A stretch of DNA of 64,000 nt. Source: Zobellia uliginosa. GTDB lineage: Bacteria > Bacteroidota > Bacteroidia > Flavobacteriales > Flavobacteriaceae. Location of the stretch: positions 434,001-498,000 of the forward strand of contig NZ_JAHKPY010000003.1 of assembly GCF_018860745.1 (NCBI RefSeq). The letters run 5' to 3'. The notes beneath the pieces are model-generated. The model made no database searches. It was given only the letters and a program-made list of their open reading frames with translations, and was not told where the DNA came from. How positions within the stretch are numbered: the first letter of the stretch is position 1; each line of letters opens with the position of its first letter. Below are positions 1 through 39,647 of the stretch, in pieces. Made by a program: the position numbers and the translations under genes.

Positions 1-1
1 G

Positions 2-809: not shown

Positions 810-2489
810 ATGCGCTGCAAAAAGAACAATCTACTGTATGCTCTTTTGTTGCTTATTGTATTTTCTTCTTGTAAAGAAGAAAAGGCTGTAATCACAGAAA
901 AAAAACCGAATATTATCTACATTATGGCTGATGACCATACTACCCAGGGTTTTGGGATTTATGGTAGCCGGTTGGCAAAATTAAACCCTACACCAACATT
1001 GGATAAGATTGCCAAGGAAGGTATCATCTTTGACAATTGCTTCGTAAGTAATTCAATCTGTACGCCAAGTCGTGCAGCCATTATTACGGGTCAGAACTCT
1101 CAGTTAAACGGAGTTTTAGATTTGGATGGTCGTATTGAACCAGCTCGCCAGTTTCTTCCAATTGAAATGAAAAAATTAGGTTACCAAACCGCTGTTGTTG
1201 GTAAATGGCACTTAAAAGAAGAGCCTGCAGCGTTTGACTATTATAAGGTTTTACCTGGTCAAGGTAAATATTTTGATCCTGAGTTCAGGGTTCGTGGTGA
1301 TAAGCCGTGGCCTAAAAATACTGTTCAGACTAAGGGGCATTCTTCTGACATGGTTACCGATATTTCTTTGGATTGGTTAAAGAACGAAAGAGACCCTAAC
1401 AAACCTTTCTTTTTAGTGCATCAGTTTAAAGCACCTCATGATGATTTTGAAAATGCTCCTCGTTACGAAGAGTATTTGGCGGATACCTTTATTCCAGAGC
1501 CTGAAAGCCTGTACGAAAGAGGAAATAACGGTTCTATTGCTACACGTGGTAAGAATGATTCGTTGACTAGAATTATTGGATCTTCTGTATCGCACAGAAA
1601 CTTGATTCGTAACCAGGCTATGAACATTTATGTAGATAGCTCTATTCACCGTTCATATCGTGATGCGGATAAAATCCGTCCAGAAGAATATGTAAAATGG
1701 GAAATGGATGATGAAGAGAAGAAATATACGAGTAAGGTTTATCAGGACTACGTAAAAAAGTATTTGCGTTGCGTAAAAGGAGTTGATGATAACGTAAAAC
1801 GTTTAATGGATTATTTAGAGGCTGAAGGTCTTATGGACAATACTATAATCGTTTATACCGGAGATCAAGGTTTTATGCTTGGTGAACATGATTTTATTGA
1901 TAAAAGATGGATGTATGAAGAATCTATGCGAATGCCTTTCTTTGTGCGTTACCCTGAAAAAATAAAAGCAGGAACTCGCACGGATGCAATTATCAATAAT
2001 ACAGATTTTGCACCTACGATTATTGAATTGGCTGGCGGAAGCACACCTGATTACATGCAAGGAAAAAGCTTTAAAACAATTTTGGAAACAGGGGAGGAGC
2101 CTGAAGATTGGCAAAAGTCTACCTATTACAGGTATTGGATGCATATGGCACACCGTCACCAAAACCCCGCACATTTTGGCGTTCGTACCAAGGATCATAA
2201 ATTGATATTTTTCTACGGAAAATATTATGTGGATACCAGCGACCCAAATGCAGAATGGGACAAAGAGAATTGGGGTAACGATTTTTCTACGGATACACCT
2301 GCAGCGTGGGAGTTTTATGATTTAAAGGAAGACCCTAAGGAAATGAACAATGCCTATGCCGACCCTGCGTATGCAGAAACTATAGCAGATTTAAAGAAAG
2401 AATTGTTGAGGCTTCGTAAAGACTTGAATGAAACCGATGAGAAATATCCCCAGATTCAAAAAGTTATAGACGAGCATTGGGATGATTAA
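810..2489 (+). CDS. S1-family sulfatase, lipoprotein
   Basis: A 559-residue formylglycine-dependent sulfatase. The N-terminus is a lipoprotein signal with lipobox cysteine at residue 21, so it is probably anchored in the outer membrane or periplasm. The metal-site start NIIYIMADD (Asp41, Asp42), the modification motif CTPSR with Cys84, GKWH (Lys132, His134) and a later GDQGFMLGEH metal motif are all present, so the enzyme appears intact. The stretch DYYKVLPGQGKYFDPEF resembles the N-acetylglucosamine-6-sulfatase-like S1 branch, which suggests a 6-sulfate on a hexose. Given the neighbouring L-galactose-type operon, L-galactose-6-sulfate of porphyran is a possible substrate, but that is inference. 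The Cys-type site needs a maturing enzyme that is not encoded in this window. It converges on the mutarotase gene across a shared terminator. Confidence 0.93.
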   Translation: MRCKKNNLLYALLLLIVFSSCKEEKAVITEKKPNIIYIMADDHTTQGFGIYGSRLAKLNPTPTLDKIAKEGIIFDNCFVSNSICTPSRAAIITGQNSQLNGVLDLDGRIEPARQFLPIEMKKLGYQTAVVGKWHLKEEPAAFDYYKVLPGQGKYFDPEFRVRGDKPWPKNTVQTKGHSSDMVTDISLDWLKNERDPNKPFFLVHQFKAPHDDFENAPRYEEYLADTFIPEPESLYERGNNGSIATRGKNDSLTRIIGSSVSHRNLIRNQAMNIYVDSSIHRSYRDADKIRPEEYVKWEMDDEEKKYTSKVYQDYVKKYLRCVKGVDDNVKRLMDYLEAEGLMDNTIIVYTGDQGFMLGEHDFIDKRWMYEESMRMPFFVRYPEKIKAGTRTDAIINNTDFAPTIIELAGGSTPDYMQGKSFKTILETGEEPEDWQKSTYYRYWMHMAHRHQNPAHFGVRTKDHKLIFFYGKYYVDTSDPNAEWDKENWGNDFSTDTPAAWEFYDLKEDPKEMNNAYADPAYAETIADLKKELLRLRKDLNETDEKYPQIQKVIDEHWDD

Positions 2490-2509
2490 GTAATTAACGT
2501 AACCAAAAA

Positions 2510-2546
2510 AAAAGAGCCTAGTTAAAAACTTTAATTAGGCTCTTTT
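2510..2546. terminator. Bidirectional intrinsic terminator
   Basis: A 16-bp stem (2510-2525 and 2531-2546, with one G-T pair) has a 5-base loop, an A-run on its left flank and a T-run at its right end. It sits between the converging sulfatase and mutarotase genes and can serve both strands. Confidence 0.85.
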
Positions 2547-2565
2547 CAATTATATAAGAATGGTA

Positions 2566-2907
2566 TTAGAGTTTAAAAATCCGCTCTAATTTAATCCATT
2601 TTTCACCATTTTTGGCCCAAGGCAAGCCTTGTTGATATTTCCACATCAATTGTTCCCATTCCTGTACGGCAGGGTTATTGGCATCCATTTCAGCCTTTCT
2701 CTTGGCATCAAAAGTTTCATCGACCTCCATAATCATAAACATGCGGTTTCCGGTTAGGAAAATCTGCATGTCTAAAATACCCGCATCTTTAATACTTTTT
2801 GTTATTGCGGGACGGGCGTTACCAGGAGCATGATATTCTTTGTATTCTGCAATGAGTTTTGGGTCATCTTTAAGATCACAGGAATAGCAGTATCTTTTCG
2901 TTTTCAT
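2566..2907 (-). CDS. L-rhamnose/L-fucose mutarotase family protein (DUF718)
   Basis: A 113-residue small dimeric ferredoxin-like protein of the RhaM (DUF718) family, which interconverts alpha and beta anomers of 6-deoxy-L-sugars. The family signature is partly visible: an early YKEYHAPGN segment holding the expected histidine, a central MQIFLTGNRMFMIMEV strand, and the C-terminal WEQLMWKYQQGLPWAKNGEKW block. The usual VWPE after the histidine is replaced by GNARPA. It is the last gene of the seven-gene minus-strand operon, separated from fucP by one base, so it is very likely translationally linked. In that context it would speed anomer exchange of L-galactose or L-fucose before oxidation by the SDR. 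The exact sugar is inferred from neighbours. Confidence 0.85.
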   Translation of the reverse strand: MKTKRYCYSCDLKDDPKLIAEYKEYHAPGNARPAITKSIKDAGILDMQIFLTGNRMFMIMEVDETFDAKRKAEMDANNPAVQEWEQLMWKYQQGLPWAKNGEKWIKLERIFKL

Positions 2908-2908
2908 G

Positions 2909-4252
2909 TTAAGCTGTTTTCAATTTGGTTACTTTATAGGCGTACATACCGTAGAATGCAACAAATAAAAGACAAATCATAGGTAATAGGAAAGAAAAGT
3001 GAATTTCAGTTATGTTTCCAGCTATCTTATCACCAAATACTTCTTGTCCGTTTACGGTATCGCCAAAATCCATTATACTTGCTTGCAACTTCGGTAAAAA
3101 TGCACCACCTACAATCGCCATAATAAGTCCAGATGAAGCCAGTTTTGCTTCTTCACCCATATCTTTAAGAGCGAGGCCATAAATGGTCGGGAACATAATA
3201 GACATAAATACGGAAACAAATACCAAAAATACCAGGCTTAGAATGCCTGAGGTCATTATGATACCAGCACACATGAGTGCAGCCGCTAAACCAAAATAAG
3301 CTAACATTTTAGCAGGATTTATTTTTTTCATCAATGCCGTTCCAATAAAGCGGGTGACAACAAATGATACCATGGCGGTAATATTCCACCATGTAGCATC
3401 AACACCTAAGTTTTGAGATTCGTTTAAATATTCTACCAACTGAAAAATAGCTGTCCAGCACATAATCTGGGCACCTACGTAGAACATTTGGGCAACAACA
3501 CCCAAGAGAAAGGTCTTACTCTTAAAAATACGGTCAACAGATTCTTTTATAGATAGATGATCACCCATTACCATTGCAGGAATTTTTGTCCTCCAAATTA
3601 CCAGAAAAACCAAAGCGACAAATATGCCAACAGCAATGTACGGACCACTGATAATATTCAGGTCAAAAGCTTTGATTTCAGCAGCTTTTTCAGCTCCTTG
3701 GGCTATAATTTCAGAGCTATCTGCATAATCGGCAGATAGAATTCTATCTAATACCACAAACTTGGCAATCAACATACCTGTTAGCGAACCAATAGGGTTA
3801 AAGGATTGTGCCAAGTTCAATCTTTGCGTAGCCGTTTCTTTATCCCCCATGGAAAGAATCAATGGGTTAGAGGTGGTTTCCAAGAATCCTAATCCGCAAG
3901 TAATTACAAAGAGCGAAATCAAGAAATAGGTATAAGAACCATTTTCGGCTGCAGGATAAAAGAGAATGGCACCTAAAGCATAAAGCGCCAAACCGAGTAA
4001 TAACCCTGATTTATAACTGAATTTACGTATGAATAAAGCGGCAGGAATAGCCATAACACCATAACCAAAATAGAATGCAAATTGCACATTGTATGCTTCT
4101 TCATTAGAAAGAATCATTACTTTTTTAAAGGCAGCAACCATAGGGTTTGTCAAATCGTTGGCAAATCCCCAAAGGGCAAAAATAGACGTCGCCGCAATAA
4201 ATGGAACGAGCAAATGCTTAGGTACTACAGGTATTTTGGTGTTTTTTGTCAT
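2909..4252 (-). CDS. fucP: FucP-type sugar:proton symporter (MFS)
   Basis: A 447-residue MFS permease with about 12 hydrophobic segments. It belongs to the FucP subfamily (fucose/glucose/galactose:H+ symporters), recognisable from FALWGFANDLTNPMV near residue 28, the LGFLETTSNPLIL segment, and the NLAQSFNPIGSLTG segment. It would move a monosaccharide across the inner membrane. The known E. coli FucP takes L-fucose and also L-galactose, which differs only by the 6-OH. Because the operon also encodes UxaA, UxaB and a C5-type Zn-dehydrogenase, L-galactose is the better candidate here, with L-fucose as the alternative. It starts 25 bases after the SDR stop and is followed after one base by the mutarotase. 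Confidence 0.9.
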   Translation of the reverse strand: MTKNTKIPVVPKHLLVPFIAATSIFALWGFANDLTNPMVAAFKKVMILSNEEAYNVQFAFYFGYGVMAIPAALFIRKFSYKSGLLLGLALYALGAILFYPAAENGSYTYFLISLFVITCGLGFLETTSNPLILSMGDKETATQRLNLAQSFNPIGSLTGMLIAKFVVLDRILSADYADSSEIIAQGAEKAAEIKAFDLNIISGPYIAVGIFVALVFLVIWRTKIPAMVMGDHLSIKESVDRIFKSKTFLLGVVAQMFYVGAQIMCWTAIFQLVEYLNESQNLGVDATWWNITAMVSFVVTRFIGTALMKKINPAKMLAYFGLAAALMCAGIIMTSGILSLVFLVFVSVFMSIMFPTIYGLALKDMGEEAKLASSGLIMAIVGGAFLPKLQASIMDFGDTVNGQEVFGDKIAGNITEIHFSFLLPMICLLFVAFYGMYAYKVTKLKTA

Positions 4253-4277
4253 GGGTTTGAATTTAAGTTGGTTGCGA

Positions 4278-5072
4278 TTAATCTTCGGTCAGTAACGAAC
4301 GGTCTAAATGTACATAGCCGCCGTCCACAAAAATAAATTGTCCTGTAGTGTGCGATGATCTATTTGAGATTGTAAATAAGCAAGTGTCTGCTATCTCATT
4401 AGTGCTGGTCATTCTATTTTCTAAAGGAATTTTCTTTACAATGGATTTTAATTTTTGTTCCCCATCAGGTAATGTTCTGATCCAAGTATCATATGATGGC
4501 GTCCAGCTTTCTGCAATAATAATCGCATTGGAACGGATGTCGTGCTTTATTAAATCTACAGCCCATTCACGCGTAAGGCCTAAAACACCTCCTTTGGAAG
4601 CAGCATAGCCCGAAGTTCTTCCTTGCCCTGTCAAAGCCACTTTAGAACCAATGTTCAAAATGTTGCCCTTTGATTCAATGAGAAAGGGAAGCGCATGTTT
4701 TACGATAAGAAAATAGCTCACCATGTTCAGCTTAAGCGAATCCATAAACTCTTCATAACTGGCATCTAGACCAACTCCGTCATTTACACCAACGTTATTG
4801 ATGACCACATCAATACGACCGTATTTTTTGGTAATTTTATTTACGGCATTTTCAATCTGAACGGGGTCAGTTACATCAGTTTGACAGAAAATAGCATCTA
4901 TTCCTTTCTCTTGAATTTTCTCAACATACCCAAAACCCCGGGCATTACGATCAATGACAGCAGGTATTGCACCTTCTTCCGCCAAACGCTGTAAAATAGT
5001 TTCTCCAATACTACCTTCTTTTCCAGCAGCTCCGCTAATAACGACTACTTTTCCTTTTAAGTTTAAATCCAT
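4278..5072 (-). CDS. SDR oxidoreductase, probable L-galactose/L-fucose 1-dehydrogenase
   Basis: A 264-residue classical short-chain dehydrogenase. The dinucleotide-binding loop is SGAAGKEGSIG (residues 13-23), followed by NNVG (92-95) and the catalytic triad Ser143, Tyr156 and Lys160 (YAASK). The C-terminus has the usual QFIFVDGGY. SDRs placed next to FucP and a fuconolactonase-type amidohydrolase are typically L-fucose dehydrogenases that oxidise the C1 hydroxyl to the lactone. L-galactose is the same sugar with a 6-OH and would be accepted by an enzyme of this type. It lies 74 bases downstream of the lactonase gene and 25 bases before fucP. The family is certain. The sugar is inferred from the pathway logic of the operon. 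Confidence 0.88.
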   Translation of the reverse strand: MDLNLKGKVVVISGAAGKEGSIGETILQRLAEEGAIPAVIDRNARGFGYVEKIQEKGIDAIFCQTDVTDPVQIENAVNKITKKYGRIDVVINNVGVNDGVGLDASYEEFMDSLKLNMVSYFLIVKHALPFLIESKGNILNIGSKVALTGQGRTSGYAASKGGVLGLTREWAVDLIKHDIRSNAIIIAESWTPSYDTWIRTLPDGEQKLKSIVKKIPLENRMTSTNEIADTCLFTISNRSSHTTGQFIFVDGGYVHLDRSLLTED

Positions 5073-5146
5073 TGCGTTCTGTTATTTTGGTGTTGTCCTT
5101 TTTTCCAGGAGAGCAACTATTGCTCAAATGAGATAGACAATCGTAA

Positions 5147-5974
5147 TTATAAATTATAGAATTCTTGTGCGTTTCCGCCCATGATCATCTCTTGGTCTTG
5201 ACTACTAAGCGTTGCAATAAAATGGGTTACAATGCTTTTAACCTGGCCGTAATTGCCTGCTACGAGACAAACGGGCCAATCAGAACCGAACATAATCCGT
5301 TCACTGCCAAAAGCTTCTAGAACCAAGTGCATGTACGGTTGTAGTTGCTCTGCTGTCCATGTATTGTAATCCGCTTCGGTAATCATACCGGAGAGCTTAC
5401 AATACACATTTTCATGTTTGCCTATTTCTTTCATCAATGCGGCCCAGCCTTCATAAAAACCATCTTTTATATAAGGTTTTGCGATATGGTCTATGACAAA
5501 TTTTTGATTAGGAAACTTCTTGATAAACTCCAAAACAGCTCCCAGCTGATGCGGGAAAACTAAAATATCATAGGTGTGATTGTATTTTTCAAGTAAACCT
5601 ATGCCCCTTAAAAAGTTAGGGCGGAGTAAAAAGTTATGATCATCCTCGCCTTGCACCACATGACGCCAGCCTTTTAAGTTTTTATCCGTGCTGTACTTTT
5701 CTAAAACCGATTCAATATTTTCAGCTCTTAAATCGGCCCAGCCCACAACGCCTTTTATGAAATTGTGCTCCTTTGCCAAATTCAATAAAAAATCGGTTTC
5801 CTTTAGAGTTTGGTCTGCTTGCACGGCAATACAACCATCAACTTGATTTTCTTGATAGACCTTCTTCAAATCTTGGGGAAGAAAATCTCTCCGGATAACT
5901 GACATGTCATCATCGATCCAAGAATGTTTAACCGGTTCGTATTTCCAAAAATGTTGGTGACTATCTATCGTCAT
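5147..5974 (-). CDS. Amidohydrolase-2 family lactonase (L-fuconolactonase type)
   Basis: A 275-residue TIM-barrel metal-dependent hydrolase. The first strand carries HQHFW with metal ligands His6 and His8; later IDHIAKP supplies a His and GSDWPVC supplies the conserved Asp. This is the pattern of L-fuconolactonase and related sugar lactonases (COG3618). Position supports the role: it lies in the same operon between uxaB and the SDR and would open the lactone made by the SDR, giving L-galactonate (or L-fuconate). No signal peptide is present, so it acts in the cytoplasm. The start at ATG 5974 gives the canonical N-terminus MTIDSHQHFW. Substrate specificity cannot be read from sequence alone. 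Confidence 0.9.
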   Translation of the reverse strand: MTIDSHQHFWKYEPVKHSWIDDDMSVIRRDFLPQDLKKVYQENQVDGCIAVQADQTLKETDFLLNLAKEHNFIKGVVGWADLRAENIESVLEKYSTDKNLKGWRHVVQGEDDHNFLLRPNFLRGIGLLEKYNHTYDILVFPHQLGAVLEFIKKFPNQKFVIDHIAKPYIKDGFYEGWAALMKEIGKHENVYCKLSGMITEADYNTWTAEQLQPYMHLVLEAFGSERIMFGSDWPVCLVAGNYGQVKSIVTHFIATLSSQDQEMIMGGNAQEFYNL

Positions 5975-6002
5975 TTTTCAATTTTTAAAGATTGAATATG
6001 GA

Positions 6003-7448
6003 TTATAAGTTTTTTAAACAGGAATTGATTCCGTTGGCTTCAATGTTTTCGATATTCTTAGCTACGGTTTCCGAAAGACCTTCTATTTGAGTTAAATCTT
6101 CGCCCCAAATAGCAGTGTTACTCAATACATTTTTTGTAAAATCCTGTAAGCTTGAACCATTGTCTACTTTCTCCCATTCCGATTTAAAGAAACTTAAAAC
6201 AGCCTTATCATCATTAAGAGCAATGTTCTCACCGTTAAACTCGCCCTTATAAAACCGGAGCATAGCTGAAAGTCCAAAAACAATGCGTTTTGGTAACTTG
6301 TCTTGAGCATTGTAATAATCTTTTAGGGTAGGCAATAAACGAGCAACGAACTTAGAAGTACTATTTAAGGAGATGCTTATAAGTTGATGTTTTAAAAGTG
6401 GGTTGCGAAAACGGTCAAGAACGTCTGCAACGAATTTGTTTTTTACATCATCCGGAAAATCAAGTGTAGTTGCGGATTCCTCCAAAAGAAGACTTTCTAC
6501 AAAGTTGCTTACCGTTTCATTTTCCATAGCTTCTTTTACAAAGCGGATGCCGGCCAAATAACCAACGGGAACCATAGAGGTATGTGCGCCGTTCAGAATG
6601 CGGACTTTCATTTCGCGATAGGGGGCAAGATCATTTACGAATTCTACGTTTAGGTCAGTTTCTGAAAAAGGAAGTTCTTTTTGAACTGTTTCATTCGCTT
6701 GGATTACCCAGCTGTGGTAATATTCACCAGCAACTAAAAGTTCATCTTTGTACTCTAATTTTTGTTCTATTTCTTCCGCACGGTCGGATGGGTAACCAGA
6801 AACGATACGATCTACCAAGGTGCTGCAAAAGTGATTTGCAGTATCTACCCAATCTTTAAATTCAGCCTCTAAGCTCCAGTGATCGGCGTATTGCAAAACC
6901 GTTTTTTTGAGAGCGTCGCCATTATCCTCGATCAATTCGCAGGGAAGTAAAATACATCCTTTTGAAGCATCTGCATTAAAGTGTTTAAAACGGTGGTACA
7001 GCCAAATCGTTAATTTAGCGGGGAATTCTTTTGGAGGTACTCCATTAAATTCATCTTTCTCATTAAATTTAATTCCGGCCTCAGTTGTATTTGAAACGAT
7101 AAAACGTAGGTCTTCATTTTCGGCCAGTTTTAGATAAGCAGCCCATTCATTATAGGAGTGAATTATTTGCTGAACCTCGGTAACCAATGTTTTTTCGGCA
7201 ACCAGTTCTCCGTTTTTAATTCCGTCAAGAACAACCGTAAAAAGTCCGTCTTGAGCTTTCAATTCCGCATAATCTCCTCCCGCAGTGGGTTTGATTATGG
7301 CAATATCTCCATTAAAATCGGTTTTCTGGTTGAGTACGTGAACCATCCAGTCCACAAAAGCGCGTAAAAAATTCCCGCCACCAAACTGCATTACCTTTAT
7401 TGGTCGTTGTGTTATATTGGCTACGTTAGTATGATTTAAAATTTGCAT
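6003..7448 (-). CDS. uxaB: Tagaturonate reductase (altronate oxidoreductase)
   Basis: A 481-residue member of the long-chain mannitol dehydrogenase family. The N-terminal Rossmann part begins with VMQFGGGNFLRAFVDWM, and the C-terminal domain has KVRILNGAHTSMVPVGYLAG with the catalytic-type Asn-Gly-Ala-His segment. Length and motifs match UxaB, which reduces D-tagaturonate to D-altronate with NADH. It is third in the operon, 39 bases after uxaA and 28 bases before the lactonase gene. No uronate isomerase (UxaC) is present, so the tagaturonate probably does not come from galacturonate. It more likely comes from C5 oxidation of L-galactonate by the Zn-dehydrogenase of the same operon. Function well supported by family; route inferred. 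Confidence 0.92.
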   Translation of the reverse strand: MQILNHTNVANITQRPIKVMQFGGGNFLRAFVDWMVHVLNQKTDFNGDIAIIKPTAGGDYAELKAQDGLFTVVLDGIKNGELVAEKTLVTEVQQIIHSYNEWAAYLKLAENEDLRFIVSNTTEAGIKFNEKDEFNGVPPKEFPAKLTIWLYHRFKHFNADASKGCILLPCELIEDNGDALKKTVLQYADHWSLEAEFKDWVDTANHFCSTLVDRIVSGYPSDRAEEIEQKLEYKDELLVAGEYYHSWVIQANETVQKELPFSETDLNVEFVNDLAPYREMKVRILNGAHTSMVPVGYLAGIRFVKEAMENETVSNFVESLLLEESATTLDFPDDVKNKFVADVLDRFRNPLLKHQLISISLNSTSKFVARLLPTLKDYYNAQDKLPKRIVFGLSAMLRFYKGEFNGENIALNDDKAVLSFFKSEWEKVDNGSSLQDFTKNVLSNTAIWGEDLTQIEGLSETVAKNIENIEANGINSCLKNL

Positions 7449-7487
7449 TAATTAGCTGTTTGTCAAGTTAAAATTCAGTTGAGATAC

Positions 7488-9140
7488 TTAAAGCGATATG
7501 CCTCTTTTCCAAGGAATAAAGTCTTCTTGCCCTAAGCGTACTGCTGCGGGAATCACCTCACCACTGGCGACTTTAATAATATATTCCAATAGCTCTTCAC
7601 CTTTTGTTTCAATGGTATCTTCTCCCGTAATTACCGTTCCGGTATTAAAATCTATAATGTCTTTCATACGAGAACTAAGCGCGTTGTTACTTGATAATTT
7701 TATGACCGGAGCAATAGGGTTTCCCGTAGGTGTACCTAATCCAGTAGTAAAACAGATTACGTTACAACCGGATCCTGCAAGACCTGTAGTGCTTTCTACA
7801 TCATTACCAGGTGTACACAAAAGATTCAGGCCTTTTTTTCTAATGGGCTCCGTGTAATCCAGTACATCGGTAACGGGACTTGTTCCCCCTTTTTTGGCTG
7901 CACCGGCAGACTTCATGGCGTCTGTAATGAGCCCGTCTTTTATGTTTCCCGGGGATGGATTATTCTCAAACCCAGACCCCACGGATACGGCCTTATCCGA
8001 ATAAGCACGCATCAGTTTTGCAAATTTTTCGGCATTTTCTTCTGTTTCACAACGGTTGATGAGTTCTTGTTCCACACCGTTCAATTCAGGGAATTCCGAA
8101 AGAACAGTTGTGGCTCCTAAGCCTACCAATAGATCCGAGGCATAACCCAAAGAAGGGTTTGCAGATATTCCTGAAAAACCATCAGAACCTCCGCATTCCA
8201 AACCTAAAACGAGTTTGGTTAGCGGTGCTGGTTTTCTTTCCGTTTTATTGGCTTCAATTAAACCTAAGAATGTTTTTTTGACCGCTTCTTCTATAAATTG
8301 ACGCTCTCCGGCACTTTTCTGTTGTTCTAGAACATACAGTGGTTTTTCAAAACTGGGATCGAGTTTAGCAATGGCTGCCTCCAACAATTTGAATTGCGCA
8401 TTCTGACAACCTAAACTTAGAATGGTAGCACCTGCCGTATTGGGGTGGGTAATGTATCCCGCTAAAAGGTTACATAGTGTTTCCGAATCTTGGCGAATAC
8501 CCCCACAACCGCCGTCATGGTTCAAGAACTTAATCCCGTCTACATTCGGAAAGGTCCTATTTTGCTTTATGTCTTCTGGAGTTTTAATGATATCCGAAGA
8601 AAGAAGGTCGTTCTCAGACGCTCCATTTTTATATTGGTTCACAAGCACCTCGGTGTCCACTACAAAATCAGTAGTGGTATGGTAGCCCAATGATTTTAGT
8701 AATGCCGATTTCATTACATCAACATTTCTATTCTCACAGAATACCAAAGGAATCACTAGCCAATGATTGGCCGTACCTACTTTACCGTCTGCTCTGTGAT
8801 ATCCATTGAAAGTAATATCTTTCCATTTACTGACATCAGGAGCGGTCCAGCTCAGTTTTTCTTGACCAACGGCATATTCAGAAGAAGCATGCACAACATT
8901 TTCAGTGGTTATGGTCTCACCTTTGGCAATAGGTTTTGTAGCCTTGCCTACTAGAGAACCGTACATGATAATGGAATCACCAATATTAAGATTTGTGATT
9001 GTAAACTTATGCTTGGCTTTCACGTCTGCCGTTAACTGAAAACGGTCGTTGTTATGAAAAATCTCAGAACCTTTAGAAATATCTGTAAGGGCTGCCAGAA
9101 CATTATCTTCAGGATGTATTTGTAAAAATTGCTTTGACAT
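7488..9140 (-). CDS. uxaA: Altronate dehydratase (UxaA family)
   Basis: A 550-residue UxaA-type dehydratase. The N-terminal SAF domain (about residues 8-95) is followed by the large catalytic domain with NHDGGCGG, SLGCQNAQ, LGLECGGSDGFSGI and GGTSPVTDVLDY, which are hallmark segments of altronate/galactarate dehydratases. Several conserved cysteines and histidines in these segments are consistent with metal binding. The known reaction is D-altronate to 2-keto-3-deoxy-D-gluconate (KDG). It lies 51 bases after the Zn-dehydrogenase and 39 bases before uxaB. At 550 residues it is longer than E. coli UxaA (about 495), as many Bacteroidetes versions are. A role on L-fuconate instead of altronate is possible but less economical given uxaB beside it. 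Confidence 0.92.
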   Translation of the reverse strand: MSKQFLQIHPEDNVLAALTDISKGSEIFHNNDRFQLTADVKAKHKFTITNLNIGDSIIMYGSLVGKATKPIAKGETITTENVVHASSEYAVGQEKLSWTAPDVSKWKDITFNGYHRADGKVGTANHWLVIPLVFCENRNVDVMKSALLKSLGYHTTTDFVVDTEVLVNQYKNGASENDLLSSDIIKTPEDIKQNRTFPNVDGIKFLNHDGGCGGIRQDSETLCNLLAGYITHPNTAGATILSLGCQNAQFKLLEAAIAKLDPSFEKPLYVLEQQKSAGERQFIEEAVKKTFLGLIEANKTERKPAPLTKLVLGLECGGSDGFSGISANPSLGYASDLLVGLGATTVLSEFPELNGVEQELINRCETEENAEKFAKLMRAYSDKAVSVGSGFENNPSPGNIKDGLITDAMKSAGAAKKGGTSPVTDVLDYTEPIRKKGLNLLCTPGNDVESTTGLAGSGCNVICFTTGLGTPTGNPIAPVIKLSSNNALSSRMKDIIDFNTGTVITGEDTIETKGEELLEYIIKVASGEVIPAAVRLGQEDFIPWKRGISL

Positions 9141-9191
9141 AGTGTTCTTTACTTTTGTCTGTGCTTAATTGTAGGGTTGATGAACGCTTAT

Positions 9192-10217
9192 TTACTCAAA
9201 ATCAACAGTAGCCTTAATAACTCCGTTTGCTGGATCTAACCAACCATCAAAATTGGCTATCATTTCAGTATAGGGAACATTATGTGTGATGAAAGAATCT
9301 ATTGGAAAACCGCCTTTTTCCAAAACGGAAATCACATGTTCAAAATCTTCCAAGGTCGCATTTCTACTGCACATAATAGTTGTTTCCTTAGCGTGAATTT
9401 TTGGATGTGTAAATACCAATTCTCCTTTGGAAAGACCAACCAATACGTATCTTCCACCATGTGACATATAATCAGGACCTGCTTCAAGTGCTCCTTTGTG
9501 ACCTGTGGCATCAAAAACAGCTGTAGCTAAATCTCCATTGGTAATTTTTTCAACTTGTTCTACGGCATCTTTTCCACCTAAAACCACATAGTCCACACCG
9601 ATATCATTTTTGGCATAATCCAAACGCTGTTGGTTCATATCAATAGCTATTACTTTAGCTCCTGCAATCTGGGCCAATTTCATAATGCCAATTCCAATGG
9701 GGCCACAGCCAACTACAACAATAGTTTCACCCGGTTTTATATCTGCACGGCGAATAGCGTGTGCACCAATGGCCAAAGGTTCAACAACCGCCATTTGGTC
9801 ATCCGTTAATTGTTGTGCTGGGATAAGTAAATTGGTCGGAACCGTAATTTTTTCTTGCATTCCACCATCTGTGTGAACACCTAAAACTTTAATGTTCGTA
9901 CAACAGTTGGTTTTCCCATTTCTACAGGCTATACAAGTACCACAGCTTACATAAGGCATAACTACCACATTATCTCCTGGTTTAATACCTTGAGGATTCT
10001 CGTCTATTTCAACTACTTGGGTAGCTAATTCGTGACCGAGAATTCTAGGGTAGGTAAAAAAAGCCTGGTTACCCGCATAAGCGTGTAAATCCGTACCGCA
10101 AATACCTACTTTTTTTACTTTTAATATGGCTTCGCCGGATTTTCTTGTGGGTTCTTCCCTTTCTTTAAGAATGAACTCTCCCGGTTTTTCGCATACAATA
10201 TATTTCATGTGTTTCAT
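9192..10217 (-). CDS. Zn-dependent medium-chain dehydrogenase, LgoD-like (probable L-galactonate 5-dehydrogenase)
   Basis: A 341-residue MDR enzyme. Catalytic zinc ligands Cys40 (GICGTD), His62 and Glu63 (GHE) and a structural-zinc lobe with Cys92, Cys95, Cys98 and Cys105/106 are present, then a Rossmann motif VVGCGPIGIG. From memory its segments GNQAFFTYPRILGHE, GVHTDGG, and KETT followed by SRNAT-EDF closely resemble E. coli LgoD (YjjN), which oxidises L-galactonate to D-tagaturonate. LgoD works with UxaB and UxaA, and exactly these two genes follow here. It is the promoter-proximal gene of the operon. An alternative start at the fourth codon (Met4) is possible. The enzyme class is certain; L-galactonate specificity is inference, and a threonine or sorbitol dehydrogenase role is less likely in this context. 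Confidence 0.87.
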   Translation of the reverse strand: MKHMKYIVCEKPGEFILKEREEPTRKSGEAILKVKKVGICGTDLHAYAGNQAFFTYPRILGHELATQVVEIDENPQGIKPGDNVVVMPYVSCGTCIACRNGKTNCCTNIKVLGVHTDGGMQEKITVPTNLLIPAQQLTDDQMAVVEPLAIGAHAIRRADIKPGETIVVVGCGPIGIGIMKLAQIAGAKVIAIDMNQQRLDYAKNDIGVDYVVLGGKDAVEQVEKITNGDLATAVFDATGHKGALEAGPDYMSHGGRYVLVGLSKGELVFTHPKIHAKETTIMCSRNATLEDFEHVISVLEKGGFPIDSFITHNVPYTEMIANFDGWLDPANGVIKATVDFE

Positions 10218-10257
10218 CTGTTTTTAGTCACATTCATATTAAAACGAGCTGTTTCTT

Positions 10258-10286
10258 TTAACACTATCAGGGACTGAGTTAACACT
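10258..10286 (-). promoter_or_regulatory. Direct repeat upstream of the uxaA/uxaB/fucP operon (candidate AraC-type operator)
   Basis: On the plus strand TTAACACT occurs at 10258-10265 and again at 10279-10286. The copies are exactly 21 bp apart, two helical turns, in the 5' region of the Zn-dehydrogenase gene. Direct half-sites at this spacing are typical of AraC-family regulators, and one is encoded at 12093-12932. Binding is inferred only. Confidence 0.35.
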
Positions 10287-10310
10287 CCTATAGCTAGTAG
10301 TGCAGTACTG

Positions 10311-10338
10311 AAAAAGAGCGCACCTTAACGGTGCGCTC
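10311..10338 (-). terminator. Intrinsic terminator of the GH29 transcript
   Basis: A perfect 9-bp GC-rich stem (10316-10324 with 10330-10338) has a 5-base loop. On the minus strand it is followed by a run of five T (10315-10311). It lies between GH29 and the start region of the Zn-dehydrogenase, separating the two transcripts. Confidence 0.88.
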
Positions 10339-10351
10339 CTAAATTAAAAAA

Positions 10352-10362
10352 AACTAACTCAA
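10352..10362 (-). other. TTGAGTTAGTT 3'-UTR element, GH29 copy
   Basis: Read on the minus strand this is TTGAGTTAGTT, located after the GH29 stop and just before its terminator. The same 11-mer follows all three susD genes in the window, each time ahead of a hairpin terminator. Confidence 0.6.
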
Positions 10363-10382
10363 CTAACTTCTTTAATAGGGTT

Positions 10383-11930
10383 CTATAATGATATCTCAAG
10401 CACATGTGCAAAATCTCCAGACTTGTTGCCCAAGTCAGAAATTGAAAGCGCATCGTCTTTTACATCAAATGTAATTTTAGCATTGCTGCCTAATAATGTT
10501 ACACTTTTGATATTTAGGTCTTTACCATATTCACTGGCTTTTCCTAAAGATTTAATATCTACTTTGTTTCCTTCTGGCCATTCCATCATAATAGCATAAA
10601 GTTTATCGCCTTTTTTAGTAAAGCGAATATCTTGACCGGTAAAGCCTTTGTTCTGACCTTCACTATGATGTCCTTTTTTAACTTCTGTAGGGCCTTCGCC
10701 AAAAGTGCTCCAGTATTCGGTATCATAAATAGCTTCACCATTGGTGTTAAGCCAATCACCGATTTGAAATAAAATTTCTTTTTGGTCTTCTGGAATTGTT
10801 CCATCTGCCTTTGGACCTACATTTAGTAAAAGGTTTCCGTTTTTAGATACAATATCAACTAAATCATCAACCAAACTATTAGCAGTTCTGGATTCCCAGT
10901 TCATAACATAGCACCATGAATTTTTTCCGATAGAAGTATCCGTTTGCCAAGGCAGTTTGCGAATTCCAGGAAGCTTACCACGTTCCAAATCATAAATAAC
11001 AGTGCCTTCTGGGAAAGCTTCGTGGTCAAAATTCTTATCGTTTATAACCACTTCTTTACCCCATTCTATACCTTTATTATAGTAGTAAGCGGCAATTTTA
11101 GGACGGTATTCTTTGTAATCAGGGATATCTAAATAGAAATCAAACCAAAGAATATCCGGCTGGTAATTATCAATAAGGTCTACCGTTCTATCCCACCACA
11201 TTTTTTTAAACTCTTCGGAAACAGGTTCCGTTAGGTCTTTTCCTTTTGGAGAGTATAAATCTGCATACTCAGGGTCTGTGGTGTCAAATTTTTCTTTTTT
11301 ATTGTAGAAAGACCAGTTAAAAGCATAGTGGGAGGACGCCCCCATAATCATACCTTGTGCGCGACCTTCTTTAAAAAGTTCACCTAAAACATCACGTTTA
11401 GGCCCCATATCTACAGAGTTCCAACGTGTGGTGTTGGACTTGTACATGGCAAAACCATCATGGTGATCCGCAACGGGAATTACATATTTTGCACCTGATT
11501 TCTTAAAAATGTCTATCCATTCTTTGGCATCAAATTTTTCGGCCTTGAACATAGGAATGAAATCTTTGTATCCAAATTTCTTTTGGTCTCCATATGTTTT
11601 TTTATGATGAAGGTACGTGGCGTTCGGCCCTTTTTGACCTGATTTTAGCTGAGCGCTAAAAGTGGCCGTATCCATATACATTTGGCGTGGATACCACTCA
11701 GAACCAAAAGCAGGAACAGCATATGCACCCCAATGAATGAAAATACCAAACTTACTATCGTTAAACCATTCTGGATCTTTATAATTTTCTTTTATGGATT
11801 CCCAATTCGCCTCGTATTTCACTACAGTTTCTTTGACGGTAGTTTCTTCTTTTTTATCCGTTTTTGAGCCGCAAGAAGCAAGGACTGCACCGGTCAGTAA
11901 AAGTGTTAAAACTCTATTAGTTAAAATCAT
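10383..11930 (-). CDS. GH29 family glycosidase, lipoprotein (alpha-L-fucosidase or exo-alpha-L-galactosidase)
   Basis: A 515-residue GH29 enzyme. It has a lipoprotein signal (LTGAVLASC, lipobox Cys20), FGIFIHWGAYAVPAFGSEWY at about residues 61-80, HHDGF at 156-160 and the nucleophile motif PDILWFD with Asp264. The core is complete, followed by a beta-sandwich domain. GH29 enzymes remove terminal alpha-L-fucose, and a porphyran-linked member from Bacteroides plebeius is known to remove alpha-L-galactose. Here the flanking operon appears to catabolise L-galactose and no fucose-specific aldolase or kinase is present, so an exo-alpha-L-galactosidase role is plausible. It has its own terminator and lies downstream of the AraC gene on the same strand with a 162-base gap. 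Family certain; sugar uncertain. Confidence 0.93.
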   Translation of the reverse strand: MILTNRVLTLLLTGAVLASCGSKTDKKEETTVKETVVKYEANWESIKENYKDPEWFNDSKFGIFIHWGAYAVPAFGSEWYPRQMYMDTATFSAQLKSGQKGPNATYLHHKKTYGDQKKFGYKDFIPMFKAEKFDAKEWIDIFKKSGAKYVIPVADHHDGFAMYKSNTTRWNSVDMGPKRDVLGELFKEGRAQGMIMGASSHYAFNWSFYNKKEKFDTTDPEYADLYSPKGKDLTEPVSEEFKKMWWDRTVDLIDNYQPDILWFDFYLDIPDYKEYRPKIAAYYYNKGIEWGKEVVINDKNFDHEAFPEGTVIYDLERGKLPGIRKLPWQTDTSIGKNSWCYVMNWESRTANSLVDDLVDIVSKNGNLLLNVGPKADGTIPEDQKEILFQIGDWLNTNGEAIYDTEYWSTFGEGPTEVKKGHHSEGQNKGFTGQDIRFTKKGDKLYAIMMEWPEGNKVDIKSLGKASEYGKDLNIKSVTLLGSNAKITFDVKDDALSISDLGNKSGDFAHVLEISL

Positions 11931-12092: not shown

Positions 12093-12932
12093 TTAGGCTT
12101 TTGCGTATTTTTTTTGATAAGTAAGAGGAGAAGAACCCATGAATTTCTTGAATTGCCTGTGAAAAAAAGGGAGCGATTCATAACCACAAGAAAATGCAAT
12201 ATGAGAGACGGAATCATGTGTATCAAGAAGCATTCTTGCCGAGATATTTATACGGAATTCATTCAAAAAAGTAAAGAAAGGACGACCCATCATTTTGGTA
12301 AAAAACCTTGAAAAGGATTGCTCGGACATATTAACCAAATCGGCTACTTCTTTAAGGTAAATTTTACGACCATAATTCAATCCTACAAAATCATGAATTT
12401 GCGCCATTCTACTCCCATATTCAGAAGGTAGGTCTTCCGTAAAGCTAGCTCCGGATAGCGTTTTACAACTACAACTGGATAATTTCACTAAAATGGTAAG
12501 TAATTCAATATATAAGTCGTGCGCTTCTAATTCCGGGCATTTTTTTAAACGTAACAAAAGAGGAGTGGTTTCTTCTTTATTGAATAAGAGCCCTCTAGAA
12601 GAGGTCCTTAGCATGTGAAATAAAGAAGCTAGTTCTGGTACTTTAGGGAAGATACCAATATTCCATTGAATCACAATGGATTTTGATAGCCCTTCTTGGT
12701 TAGTGTTGTTTTTCCAACAATGTGGAAGATTTGAACGTAACAAAACCAATTCGCCCGGTTGGTAGGGCCCTACATAATCACCCACGAATTTAGTTCCCAC
12801 GCTTTCTTCTATATAAGTAAGCTCATGTTGAGGATGAAAATGCCAAGGCGTTTCAAAATCTTTTTTAGAATGATAAAAGCTTGTAATCGTACGTTGCTCG
12901 TCTAAGTGTATGGGCTCTAATACAGGTTTCAT
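12093..12932 (-). CDS. AraC-family transcriptional regulator with N-terminal cupin
   Basis: A 279-residue one-component regulator. The N-terminal half has a cupin-like sensor (PWHFHPQHELTYIEES, then a GELVLLRSNLPHCW segment). The C-terminal 100 residues form a double helix-turn-helix of the AraC/XylS type, with YLKEVADLVNMSEQSFSRFF and IAFSCGYESLPFFHRQFKKFMGSSP. It lies upstream of GH29 and is divergent from the P450 operon across a 184-base gap, so it is well placed to control GH29, the L-galactose-type operon and possibly the P450 genes. The sensor probably binds a monosaccharide or sugar acid. The ligand is not visible from sequence. Confidence 0.92.
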   Translation of the reverse strand: MKPVLEPIHLDEQRTITSFYHSKKDFETPWHFHPQHELTYIEESVGTKFVGDYVGPYQPGELVLLRSNLPHCWKNNTNQEGLSKSIVIQWNIGIFPKVPELASLFHMLRTSSRGLLFNKEETTPLLLRLKKCPELEAHDLYIELLTILVKLSSCSCKTLSGASFTEDLPSEYGSRMAQIHDFVGLNYGRKIYLKEVADLVNMSEQSFSRFFTKMMGRPFFTFLNEFRINISARMLLDTHDSVSHIAFSCGYESLPFFHRQFKKFMGSSPLTYQKKYAKA

Positions 12933-13116
12933 TCTAATACTAAGTTGAAAAATAAGAATATTAGGTAATAATTTATTTTGTTGTAAAATACGATAAAATT
13001 GACATGAGGGAACAGAATAAGGTACTTATTTGTTAAAAAAGGCTACTGATAGTGATTTTGAAATATTGATTTTTGTATTTCCACAGAAAGTCTATCCTAT
13101 AATACATATCGCTTAT

Positions 13117-14280
13117 ATGAAAAAAAGTGAATTTCCAGATCCGTTCGAAAAAACAAGAGAAGCAAAAGGTTACGGAGAAATGAACGATCAAGATGATCCG
13201 GTAACTATGCTTTTGCGTCATAAAGACGTTCGTAAAACAGCGCATAATTATAAAACTTTTCAGTCTGGTGCAGCTCCGGGACGTATAGTTATTCCTTCAG
13301 AGGTAAATATTCGTGATACGCGTCAAATTCCTTTTGAAGTAGATCCTCCAGTTCATAAAGAGTATAGGTCAATAGTAGAGCCCTGGTTTAAAAGACCGCT
13401 ACAACCGGAGTATCAAGAGAAATTATCAAAACAAATAGCAAACATAATAGAAGAAGTACTTCAGGAAGATTCAGTTGAAGTAGTAACGGGTTTGGCGCTT
13501 AAGTTACAGTCTAGAGCACTAACGTTATTGTTAAACACTCCTTTTGATGAATCTGAAAAGTGGATTTCCTGGGGAACACACGTCTTTAGAAGTGAAGGTG
13601 AAGCTCTTGATGGGGACAAGGCGAATATCCTATATGATTATATAGATGCACAAATAGACCGTGCAGCCAAAAGCCCAACGGACGATATGTACTCCGTGCT
13701 TTTGGACTCTGAATTTGAAGGTAGAAAGTTAACCAAAGAAGAAGTAAAAGGTGTCATGGTACTGACTTTTGCAGGAGGAAGAGATACGGTAATAAATGCG
13801 GTTACAAATGCCATAGCGTATTTGGCGGAAAACCCCGAGTCTTTGGAGCGCTTGCGTAATGAACCAGAAATTACAGGAAAGACCGTAGAAGAGATGATTC
13901 GGTATTTTTCTCCGCTTACCCAAATGGGGCGTGTAGTTACAGAAGATACTTTTGTTTGTGAGCATGCTGCCAAGGCAGATACTAGGGTATCCTTATGTTG
14001 GGCCTCTGCCAATAGGGATGCCGCTGTTTTTGAAAATCCCAATGAGATTGTAATGGATCGTAAAATCAACCCGCATGTTGGTTTTGGTTTTAGTCACCAT
14101 AACTGTTTGGGTGCTACTCATGCAAGACAGATCATGAAAATATTACTTCAGACTTTAGCTGAAAAAATAGGCTCGTTTGAAATACTCGATTACGAAGAAA
14201 ATATAGAAGATTTACATCACTTTAAACGTAAAGTGGGTTTCCACAGTATTAATATGAAATTCAATCCTTTAACAAAATAG
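13117..14280 (+). CDS. Cytochrome P450, probable 6-O-methyl-D-galactose demethylase
   Basis: A 387-residue soluble class I P450, counted from ATG 13117. The frame is open from TTG 13030, but the extra 29 residues are hydrophobic and not P450-like, so the ATG is preferred. The oxygen-binding I-helix motif is AGGRDT (219-224), the ExxR motif is EMIR (259-262), and the heme loop FGFSHHNCLG has Cys330 as thiolate ligand. The ferredoxin and reductase genes follow at spacings of 5 and 6 bases, giving a complete three-component system. In marine Flavobacteriia such clusters (Reisky et al. 2018) oxidatively demethylate 6-O-methyl-D-galactose from porphyran, releasing D-galactose and formaldehyde. The substrate is taken from that precedent and the galactan context. 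The enzyme class is certain. Confidence 0.92.
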   Translation: MKKSEFPDPFEKTREAKGYGEMNDQDDPVTMLLRHKDVRKTAHNYKTFQSGAAPGRIVIPSEVNIRDTRQIPFEVDPPVHKEYRSIVEPWFKRPLQPEYQEKLSKQIANIIEEVLQEDSVEVVTGLALKLQSRALTLLLNTPFDESEKWISWGTHVFRSEGEALDGDKANILYDYIDAQIDRAAKSPTDDMYSVLLDSEFEGRKLTKEEVKGVMVLTFAGGRDTVINAVTNAIAYLAENPESLERLRNEPEITGKTVEEMIRYFSPLTQMGRVVTEDTFVCEHAAKADTRVSLCWASANRDAAVFENPNEIVMDRKINPHVGFGFSHHNCLGATHARQIMKILLQTLAEKIGSFEILDYEENIEDLHHFKRKVGFHSINMKFNPLTK

Positions 14281-14285
14281 AAGCC

Positions 14286-14594
14286 ATGGCAAAAATCACT
14301 TTTATAACCAACGACGAAGAAACTATAACATTAGAAGGTACATCCGGTTCTGTAATGGCATTGGCTGTAGATAATGGTGTGCCCGGAATTGATGGCGATT
14401 GTGGGGGAGTTTGCTCTTGTGCTACTTGCCACGTTCATGTAGCTCCAGAAGACATGGAGAAAACAGGAAGTGCAAGCGAAATTGAGACAGATATGCTAGA
14501 GTTGGATGATAATGCAGATGAATATAGCCGTTTATGCTGCCAAATAGATATTACCGATGCTATTGATGGTGTTGTGTTGAAAGTCGCCAAATAA
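14286..14594 (+). CDS. [2Fe-2S] ferredoxin, putidaredoxin/adrenodoxin type
   Basis: A 102-residue electron carrier for the adjacent P450. The cluster ligands are Cys39, Cys45 and Cys48 (CGGVCSCATC) and Cys84/85 in SRLCCQI, the spacing seen in putidaredoxin. The SRLCCQI and DGVVLKV segments near the C-terminus are typical of the adrenodoxin subclass, not plant-type ferredoxins. It starts 5 bases after the P450 stop and ends 6 bases before the reductase, so the three are co-translated. It passes single electrons from the FAD reductase to the heme. Confidence 0.95.
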   Translation: MAKITFITNDEETITLEGTSGSVMALAVDNGVPGIDGDCGGVCSCATCHVHVAPEDMEKTGSASEIETDMLELDDNADEYSRLCCQIDITDAIDGVVLKVAK

Positions 14595-14600
14595 AACATA

Positions 14601-15857: not shown

Positions 15858-15878
15858 CAATATATAAAAGCACAAATA

Positions 15879-34850: not shown

Positions 34851-34853
34851 AGA

Positions 34854-39631: not shown

Positions 39632-39647
39632 TAGAGAAACAAAGTTA

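What the first reader, a model, noticed from the sequence alone, without database searches (positions are those of the whole stretch)
2566..10217. Seven-gene operon that reads as a complete L-galactose to KDG pathway
The order FucP, mutarotase, SDR, lactonase, LgoD-like Zn-dehydrogenase, UxaB and UxaA matches a full oxidative route. The SDR gives L-galactonolactone, the lactonase gives L-galactonate, C5 oxidation gives D-tagaturonate, UxaB gives D-altronate and UxaA gives KDG. E. coli uses the last three steps for L-galactonate. The FucP/SDR/lactonase part alone would suggest L-fucose, but UxaA and UxaB plus the C5 dehydrogenase only make simple sense with a 6-OH. No UxaC is present, so galacturonate is unlikely. 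L-galactose-6-sulfate is a main unit of porphyran.
Basis: partly seen in the sequence, partly recalled or inferred. Interest (0 to 1): 0.8.

Follow-up and report, generated by a model that had tools for sequence, protein, structure and literature searches.

The report
L-galactose breakdown operon in Zobellia
A seaweed-associated bacterium, apparently a Zobellia, carries one gene set that appears to free the rare sugar L-galactose from red-algal polysaccharide and burn it to ordinary metabolites; the chemistry is known from other bacteria, but this version uses a different first enzyme and sits beside polysaccharide-degrading genes.

Summary
All seven genes are present at 2566-10217, tightly packed on the minus strand. 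The genome has a separate L-fucose operon (L-fuconate dehydratase, FAH hydrolase, its own dehydrogenase and FucP; no lactonase seen in it). In some relatives an aldo-keto reductase resembling L-galactose dehydrogenases takes the SDR slot; the two were never seen together. All 83 sampled genomes with the Zn-dehydrogenase have a tagaturonate reductase, against 36 of 314 without it. L-galactose to KDG is thus well supported by sequence; no activity was measured. The pathway itself is known (Phocaeicola vulgatus, Luteolibacter; E. coli for the acid). What differs is the SDR entry enzyme and its place beside galactan-degrading genes, in an operon common in Flavobacteriaceae.

The parts
2566..2907 (-). 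RhaM-type mutarotase (anomer conversion of the L-sugar), last gene of the operon
   Evidence: PF05336, 102.6 bits; same end position in many sister operons
2909..4252 (-). FucP-type L-sugar:H+ symporter
   Evidence: TIGR00885, 459 bits, cut-off 280.4; 51% to the second FucP in the genome's L-fucose operon
4278..5072 (-). SDR, L-fucose-dehydrogenase family; inferred L-galactose 1-dehydrogenase giving L-galactonolactone
   Evidence: NF052481 352 bits, cut-off 300; PDB 4gkb group 255 bits; YAASK motif; slot held by an AKR in 6 of 80 loci, never together
5147..5974 (-). Amidohydrolase-2 lactonase; inferred L-galactono-lactonase
   Evidence: PF04909; NF052480 277 bits, below cut-off 400; only PDB match at E <= 1e-5 is the 4dlf group, 187 bits
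6003..7448 (-). UxaB, D-tagaturonate reductase to D-altronate
   Evidence: NF002969 667 bits, cut-off 359; only match in this genome at E <= 1e-40
7488..9140 (-). UxaA/GarD-superfamily dehydratase; inferred D-altronate dehydratase to KDG
   Evidence: SAF + GD_AH_second + GD_AH_C; only match in this genome at E <= 0.001
9192..10217 (-). Zn-dependent MDR dehydrogenase; inferred L-galactonate 5-dehydrogenase giving D-tagaturonate
   Evidence: 41.5% to E. coli LgoD over full length; zinc-ligand residues present; co-occurs with UxaB in 83 of 83 genomes
10383..11930 (-). GH29, lipoprotein-like N-terminus by eye, closest to exo-alpha-L-galactosidases; possible first structural gene
   Evidence: PDB 7snk/7ljj/7lnp 439-447 bits against 294 for the next GH29
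12093..12932 (-). Cupin-AraC regulator, same direction, probable operon regulator
   Evidence: PF12833, PF07883; ortholog upstream of the Zn-dehydrogenase in 7 of 80 loci (cluster c19)
810..2489 (+). S1 sulfatase convergent with the operon, closest to exo-L-galactose-6-sulfatase
   Evidence: PDB 7lha/7lj2 639 bits, 7snj/7sno 606-609; next 368 bits; CTPSR motif
13030..16997 (+). Divergent P450, ferredoxin reductase and Zn-ADH genes, matching the described 6-O-methyl-D-galactose demethylation genes of porphyran degraders (a ferredoxin gene was not looked for)
   Evidence: Pfam; gene set described in PMC10033563 (passages)

Best explanation
It is an operon for complete use of L-galactose from porphyran- or agar-type red-algal galactan. 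The sulfatase removes 6-sulfate from terminal L-galactose and the GH29 cuts off the L-galactose. FucP imports it and the mutarotase supplies the right anomer. The SDR oxidises C1 to L-galactonolactone, and the amidohydrolase opens this to L-galactonate. The Zn-dehydrogenase oxidises C5 to D-tagaturonate, UxaB reduces it to D-altronate and UxaA dehydrates it to KDG. KDG kinase and KDPG aldolase, encoded elsewhere in the genome, finish the route. Shown here: gene content, order, family membership, neighbourhood and co-occurrence. Inferred: every individual activity and the order of the steps.
For: GH29 closest to exo-alpha-L-galactosidases and sulfatase closest to exo-L-galactose-6-sulfatases lie on either side of the operon. 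The GH29 ortholog lies within 10 kb of the Zn-dehydrogenase in 12 of 80 loci (three of them of the window's genus), and all 12 have UxaB there. In 6 of 80 loci an AKR whose best PDB hits are L-galactose dehydrogenases replaces the SDR, never together with it; in the overlapping named set it is 4 of 80, again never together. The genome has a separate L-fucose operon with FucD, SDR, FAH, L-fucose dehydrogenase and FucP. The Zn-dehydrogenase co-occurs with UxaB in 83 of 83 genomes against 36 of 314 without it. KdgK and Eda genes are present and a KdgK lies near the Zn-dehydrogenase in 17 of 80 loci. A Burkholderia L-fucose dehydrogenase is reported to oxidise L-galactose too (PMC10746189, passage); that it is the 4gkb protein is recalled.
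Against: No activity or expression data for these genes were seen. The SDR, FucP and lactonase carry L-fucose names. The AKR's lead is small: best L-galactose dehydrogenase 84 bits, IolS 75. The genome's L-fucose operon shows no lactonase or mutarotase of its own among the ORFs I called, so the window's could serve both sugars; I did not search the rest of the genome for another. The Zn-dehydrogenase also sits in fucose-type loci: 10 of 80 have the FAH + SDR pair within 10 kb; none of the 10 has both UxaA and UxaB, two (L059, L079) have UxaB. Three of 16 named loci with the GH29 ortholog lack UxaB nearby (L140, L171, L192). A species named for fucoidan use carries the operon twice (Tamlana fucoidanivorans, L159, L168). 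No GH16 porphyranase was recognised.
Confidence: 0.82

Rival explanations
1. The operon uses L-fucose (or D-arabinose): FucP, mutarotase, SDR and lactonase make L-fuconate, and the Zn-dehydrogenase, UxaB and UxaA act on 6-deoxy analogues.
For: FucP, L-fucose dehydrogenase and fuconolactonase family names. UxaA-family L-fuconate dehydratases are inferred by others (PMC6336799, passages). The Zn-dehydrogenase occurs in fucose-type loci. The genome's other L-fucose operon shows no lactonase of its own.
Against: The same genome has a separate L-fucose operon with FucD, SDR, FAH, L-fucose dehydrogenase (407 bits to NF052481 against 352 here) and FucP. GH29 and sulfatase neighbours point to L-galactose. 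An AKR resembling L-galactose dehydrogenases can replace the SDR.
Confidence: 0.06
2. Same enzymes, different order: UxaA dehydrates L-galactonate first to 2-keto-3-deoxy-L-galactonate, then the Zn-dehydrogenase and UxaB invert C5 through a 2,5-diketo acid, as in the 3,6-anhydro-L-galactose route.
For: A UxaA-family member is proposed, from unpublished data, as an L-galactonate dehydratase (PMC6336799, passages). The L-AHG route runs KDGal, DDGal, KDG (PMC5943477, passages). A likely L-AHG cluster lies in the same window at 38408-45457.
Against: UxaB scores far above the tagaturonate-reductase cut-off. Luteolibacter LguB converted D-altronate to KDG and the lgu route runs oxidation, reduction, dehydration (PMC12632266). 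The Zn-dehydrogenase is only 32% identical to the Zn-dehydrogenase of the likely L-AHG cluster.
Confidence: 0.08
3. UxaB and UxaA here mainly serve D-galacturonate, with UxaC encoded elsewhere.
For: UxaC is present at C8:466768, and no other UxaA (E <= 0.001) or UxaB (E <= 1e-40) match was found in the genome.
Against: UxaC lies on another contig beside TRAP-transporter genes; the operon holds an L-aldose transporter, dehydrogenase and lactonase that galacturonate would not need. A secondary role stays possible.
Confidence: 0.02

Closest known systems
L-galactose pathway of Phocaeicola (Bacteroides) vulgatus, BVU_0219 and BVU_0222 (Hobbs et al. 2014; seen only as cited in PMC12632266; the paper is not held)
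   Same: L-galactose dehydrogenase, L-galactonate dehydrogenase and D-tagaturonate as intermediate (as cited); a lactonase is also part of it (recalled)
   Different: First enzyme there clusters with plant GALDH and LguA; here it is an SDR. The operon here also has FucP, mutarotase, UxaB, UxaA and a GH29 neighbour.
lguABCDEF of Luteolibacter sp. LG18 (PMC12632266)
   Same: L-galactose to L-galactonate, D-tagaturonate, D-altronate, KDG, with the KDG kinase encoded elsewhere; there shown with purified enzymes and gene disruptions
   Different: LguA clusters with L-galactose dehydrogenases such as plant GALDH and also acts on L-glucose; the word lactonase does not occur in the text; no GH29, sulfatase or FucP in the gene list seen; Verrucomicrobiota
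E. coli LgoD with UxaB and UxaA for L-galactonate
   Same: Zn-dehydrogenase 41.5% identical to LgoD; same three reactions from L-galactonate to KDG (as cited in PMC12632266)
   Different: In K-12 lgoD lies beside lgoT and lgoR, without aldose-oxidation genes
[quoted passage not shown]
   Same: lgoD, uxaA and uxaB or uxaF placed together with L-fuconate genes; parallels the mixed loci seen here in relatives
   Different: TRAP transporter for the acids; predicted from genomes; no GH29 or sulfatase mentioned in the passages
Exo-acting porphyran steps of Bacteroides plebeius, BpS1_11 and BpGH29 (PMC12316285, passages)
   Same: GH29 and sulfatase of the window are closest to solved enzymes of these kinds
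   Different: The passages seen do not say how the freed L-galactose is used

Membership tests
Oxidative L-galactose pathway (P. vulgatus / Luteolibacter type) | L-galactose 1-dehydrogenase of the AKR / GALDH cluster | tested here: not met
   The operon has an SDR; AKRs occupy this slot only in relatives, 6 of 80 loci. Hence filed as a variant that works like it.
Oxidative L-galactose pathway (P. vulgatus / Luteolibacter type) | L-galactonate 5-dehydrogenase of the Zn-dependent type | tested here: met
   41.5% full-length identity to E. coli LgoD, zinc-ligand residues present; by family only, activity untested, and not compared with BVU_0222 or LguD
Oxidative L-galactose pathway (P. vulgatus / Luteolibacter type) | Tagaturonate reductase and altronate dehydratase | tested here: met
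   NF002969 above cut-off; UxaA-type domains. Substrate of UxaA is not fixed by family.
Oxidative L-galactose pathway (P. vulgatus / Luteolibacter type) | Catalytic activity on L-galactose | not testable with these tools
   needs assay
Oxidative L-fucose pathway (Xanthomonas type) | L-fuconate dehydratase, 2-keto-3-deoxy-L-fuconate dehydrogenase and FAH hydrolase in the locus | tested here: not met
   None among the ORFs of the operon; such genes lie in a separate operon on contig C10
D-galacturonate isomerase pathway (UxaCBA) | UxaC with UxaB and UxaA in one locus | tested here: not met
   The only UxaC match is at C8:466768, another contig
GH29 exo-alpha-L-galactosidase (BpGH29) | Closer to characterised alpha-L-galactosidases than to alpha-L-fucosidases | tested here: met
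   439-447 bits against 294 or less among PDB chains
GH29 exo-alpha-L-galactosidase (BpGH29) | Activity on desulfated porphyran oligosaccharide | not testable with these tools
   needs assay
L-galactose-6-sulfate exo-sulfatase (BpS1_11) | Closer to 7lha/7snj than to other solved S1 sulfatases, with C-x-P-x-R motif | tested here: met
   606-639 bits against 368 or less; CTPSR

The most novel reading that the evidence does not exclude
Flavobacteria share a modular L-sugar core (SDR or AKR, lactonase, FucP, mutarotase, Zn-dehydrogenase) that is switched between L-galactose and L-fucose by which lower arm is attached (UxaB+UxaA, or SDR+FAH). In mixed operons the same core would feed both arms, so one operon would burn both sugars, with a UxaA-type enzyme dehydrating L-fuconate.
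Probability: 0.3. Interest if true: 0.6.

Novelty: new variant of a known kind. Interest (0 to 1): 0.45.

Why it matters
L-galactose-6-sulfate is a main unit of porphyran. The porphyran papers consulted describe how L-galactose is released; in the passages I saw none says how marine bacteria use it. This operon supplies the missing steps as ordinary testable enzymes, apparently in a genus with published gene deletions. It seems to lie in the same region as the Z. galactanivorans P450 and 3,6-anhydro-L-galactose genes (inferred), so a knock-out test is direct. The Zn-dehydrogenase is common (83 of 397 sampled genomes of the family). Many copies of the operon probably carry L-fucose names and would be misread as fucose utilisation.

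Tried and rejected
L-fucose as substrate: rejected as the main role because the genome has a separate L-fucose operon, though that operon shows no lactonase or mutarotase of its own. Fucose isomerase: no match to PF07881. Galacturonate: UxaC is elsewhere, not in the operon. UxaA as proof of a 6-hydroxyl sugar: rejected (UxaA-like gene directly before the fucose-type operons in L104 and L106, and in L098 upstream beyond three opposite-strand genes).

Led nowhere: sigma-70 and terminator scan little or no better than shuffles (31 promoter-like sites, mean 30.0; 12 terminator-like, mean 8.8, sd 2.7). Rfam: none at gathering score in 1-16000. Porphyranase domain search PF18206 was silent in the controls too, so uninformative. 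The tree of the Zn-dehydrogenase leaves many forks unresolved and puts E. coli LgoD on a very long branch; it shows that seven rows, six of them fucose-type, form a supported group, while the other four fucose-type rows (L071, L078, L059, L079) lie elsewhere. The SDR tree puts the window SDR with its genus and near SDRs from both UxaAB and non-UxaAB loci. Hobbs 2014 is not held. No structure prediction was run. No paper linking this operon to L-galactose in marine flavobacteria turned up in the ten paper searches; that covers only the open-licence library and their listed results.

Limits of the counts: loci are related, so p-values are not literal. 80 of 87 Zn-dehydrogenase matches were fetched; the window's own and the six weakest (G317, G127, G144, G329, G154, G183) were left out. 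Some loci are cut by contig ends (for example L102, 3.1 kb). ORFs were called by my own script and label thresholds were set by me.
Full report
WHAT IS THERE. The window has seven minus-strand ORFs from 2566 to 10217 with gaps of 1-74 bases. By rising coordinate they are mutarotase, FucP, SDR, lactonase, UxaB, UxaA and Zn-dehydrogenase; transcription runs the other way. UxaB (667 bits, cut-off 359), FucP (459, cut-off 280) and SDR (352 to L-fucose dehydrogenase, cut-off 300) pass curated cut-offs. The lactonase is a clear relative of fuconolactonase but below its cut-off (277 of 400). UxaA is named from its SAF, GD_AH_second and GD_AH_C domains. The Zn-dehydrogenase has no NCBIfam match above cut-off (best PRK10083, 206 of 376) and its best PDB match is RspB (4ilk), but it aligns with E. 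coli LgoD over 340 residues at 41.5% identity. Zinc-ligand residues and an aspartate after the second Rossmann strand, usual for NAD enzymes (recalled), are present.

A GH29 (10383-11930) lies 165 bases upstream in the same direction, and a cupin-AraC regulator (12093-12932) lies 162 bases before that. The best solved relatives of the GH29 are 7snk, 7ljj and 7lnp at 439-447 bits; the last two are deposited as exo-alpha-L-galactosidase, the first as alpha-L-fucosidase, and the next GH29 scores 294. PMC12316285 (passages) identifies 7SNK and 7LJJ as BpGH29, the exo-alpha-L-galactosidase of Bacteroides plebeius porphyran use. Converging on the operon's 3' end is a sulfatase (810-2489) with 639 bits to exo-L-galactose-6-sulfatase 7lha/7lj2 and 606-609 to 7snj/7sno (deposited as arylsulfatase); the next match is 368. 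Divergent from the regulator are P450, ferredoxin reductase and Zn-ADH genes, like the set reported for 6-O-methyl-D-galactose demethylation in porphyran users including Z. galactanivorans (PMC10033563, passages). These two flanking enzymes are the strongest pointer to L-galactose.

HOST. The window is G000:C9:434001-498000, in a 4.86 Mb genome. The nearest named homologs of the Zn-dehydrogenase are Zobellia barbeyronii (98%) and Z. russellii (96%), so a Zobellia is likely. PMC5613140 (passages and part 2 of section 12) reports ZGAL_4657-4669, an L-anhydrogalactose cluster induced by agar and less by porphyran, and an agar-responsive unit ZGAL_4688-4690. zgal_4674 is the ADH. I infer that the window is the equivalent region; the expression of the operon itself is not given in the passages I saw.

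SPREAD AND GENE ORDER. 83 of 397 sampled genomes of the family hold the Zn-dehydrogenase at E <= 1e-90, in 57 of 237 genera. I fetched 80 of the 87 matches and labelled genes by similarity to the window and by clusters. UxaA and UxaB both lie within 10 kb on the same strand in 42 of 80; UxaB in 52 of 80. The recurrent order is Zn-DH, [KdgK, Eda], UxaA, UxaB, [GH29-like], lactonase, SDR, FucP, mutarotase, with bracketed genes present only in some. Outside Flavobacteriaceae, parts of the set occur for example in Neolewinella, Agaribacillus and a Cyclobacteriaceae MAG.

NATURAL REPLACEMENT OF THE SDR. In 6 of 80 loci (L052, L055, L064, L070, L080, L086) an AKR sits in the SDR slot, and no locus has both. 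Of the 11 PDB matches of one such AKR at E <= 1e-10, five are named L-galactose dehydrogenase, including the best two (84 and 79 bits); IolS follows at 75, so the lead is small. Among 80 named loci there are 4 such cases (L149, L160 Lutibacter agarilyticus, L167, L174), again never with the SDR. The two sets overlap in genomes, so they are not independent. This suggests that the SDR oxidises L-galactose too.

GH29 ASSOCIATION. The GH29 ortholog (71-95% identity) lies near the Zn-dehydrogenase in 12 of 80 loci, three of them of the window's genus, and all 12 have UxaB there, against 0 of the 28 loci without UxaB. In the named set it is in 16 of 80, 13 of which have UxaB; the exceptions are L140 (Arenibacter aquaticus), L171 (A. 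palladensis) and L192 (Flavobacterium flevense). A. palladensis has another locus with Zn-DH, UxaA and lactonase (L164), so its parts look split; UxaB was not seen in either stretch.

ZN-DEHYDROGENASE AND UxaB. All 83 genomes with the Zn-dehydrogenase have UxaB at E <= 1e-40, against 36 of the other 314. Kinship, and the general wealth of sugar genes in such genomes, inflate the p-value of 3e-57, but the absence of exceptions fits tagaturonate as a shared intermediate.

L-FUCOSE IS LARGELY HANDLED ELSEWHERE. Contig C10 (L131) holds an operon of an enolase-family protein with 590-594 bits to L-fuconate dehydratase 1yey/2hxt/2hne/2hxu, an SDR, a FAH hydrolase, an L-fucose dehydrogenase (407 bits, higher than the window SDR's 352), a second FucP and an L-lactate dehydrogenase-like protein. 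I saw no lactonase or mutarotase among its ORFs and did not search for one elsewhere, so the window's lactonase may serve both. The two SDRs are 53% identical and the two FucPs 51%. No fucose isomerase match was found.

EVIDENCE AGAINST OR UNRESOLVED. Ten of 80 loci have the FAH + SDR pair near the Zn-dehydrogenase. In L104 and L106 a UxaA-like gene (62-63%) comes directly before it; in L098 (54%) three opposite-strand genes lie between. [quoted passage not shown] it also puts lgoD and uxaA inside L-fuconate loci of Halomonas (PMC5507952, passages). So mixed L-fucose/L-galactose operons probably exist and UxaA alone proves nothing. The three GH16 matches of this genome over the cut-off are a beta-agarase B-like protein and two laminarinase-like proteins; a fourth, below the cut-off, was not examined. 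No porphyranase was recognised, so the strain may live on oligosaccharides or agar-type galactan. UxaC occurs on contig C8 beside TRAP genes, so UxaB and UxaA may also serve galacturonate.

LOWER PATHWAY.

PRIOR ART AND NOVELTY. The reactions are known. Luteolibacter LG18 runs L-galactose, L-galactonate, D-tagaturonate, D-altronate, KDG, with purified enzymes and gene disruptions (PMC12632266, abstract and sections 3, 16, 18, 20, 26). That paper cites the P. vulgatus L-galactose pathway (Hobbs et al. 2014; not held). E. coli does the last steps from L-galactonate (as cited there). What I did not find in print, in ten searches of an open-licence library, is this SDR-based operon, joined to alpha-L-galactosidase and L-galactose-6-sulfatase genes in marine flavobacteria. 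I rate it a new variant of a known kind: it works like the P. vulgatus route, with a non-homologous first enzyme.

Noticed in passing
L132:6234-7457 (+), host contig C1: A phosphofructokinase-family protein (closest to diphosphate-dependent PFK, below cut-off) sits between KdgK and Eda; its cluster also occurs in L070 and L073. Since Luteolibacter LguH is a PPi-using KDG kinase, this could be a PPi-dependent kinase of the same pathway.
   Followed up: partly
window 38408-47617 (+): Likely 3,6-anhydro-L-galactose cluster: GH43-like (probably GH117) enzyme, Zn-dehydrogenase, SDR, sulfatase, aldehyde dehydrogenase, enolase-family protein, aldose epimerase, RhaT-like transporter. A GH2 follows at 47714-50254.
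   Followed up: partly
L046, L047, L049, L067, L092: Loci with Zn-DH, lactonase, SDR, FucP and mutarotase but no UxaA/UxaB nearby; four of the five (not L046) lie beside UxuA, D-mannonate oxidoreductase, KdgK and Eda genes, identified on the L047 copies.
   Followed up: partly
L076, L077, L094, L097, L099, L101: Zn-dehydrogenase directly followed by UxaB without the aldose genes, as if for an L-galactonate-type acid alone.
   Followed up: no
L043, L045, L048, L053, L056, L063, L096, L100: A second GH29 group, about 40% identical to the window GH29, is inserted just after UxaB in these eight loci; its substrate is unknown.
   Followed up: no
window 31497-36497 and 50351-55532: Large FG-GAP / ASPIC-UnbV repeat proteins, one followed by a TPR protein, beside SusC/SusD-like genes.
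   Followed up: no
window 17004-18748 (+): An esterase and a PhyH-family dioxygenase follow the P450 / ADH genes; clusters c17 and c11 in relatives look like the same genes by length and order.
   Followed up: no
window 62374-63591 (+): A second enolase-superfamily protein next to an MFS transporter, near a further SusC/SusD pair.
   Followed up: no
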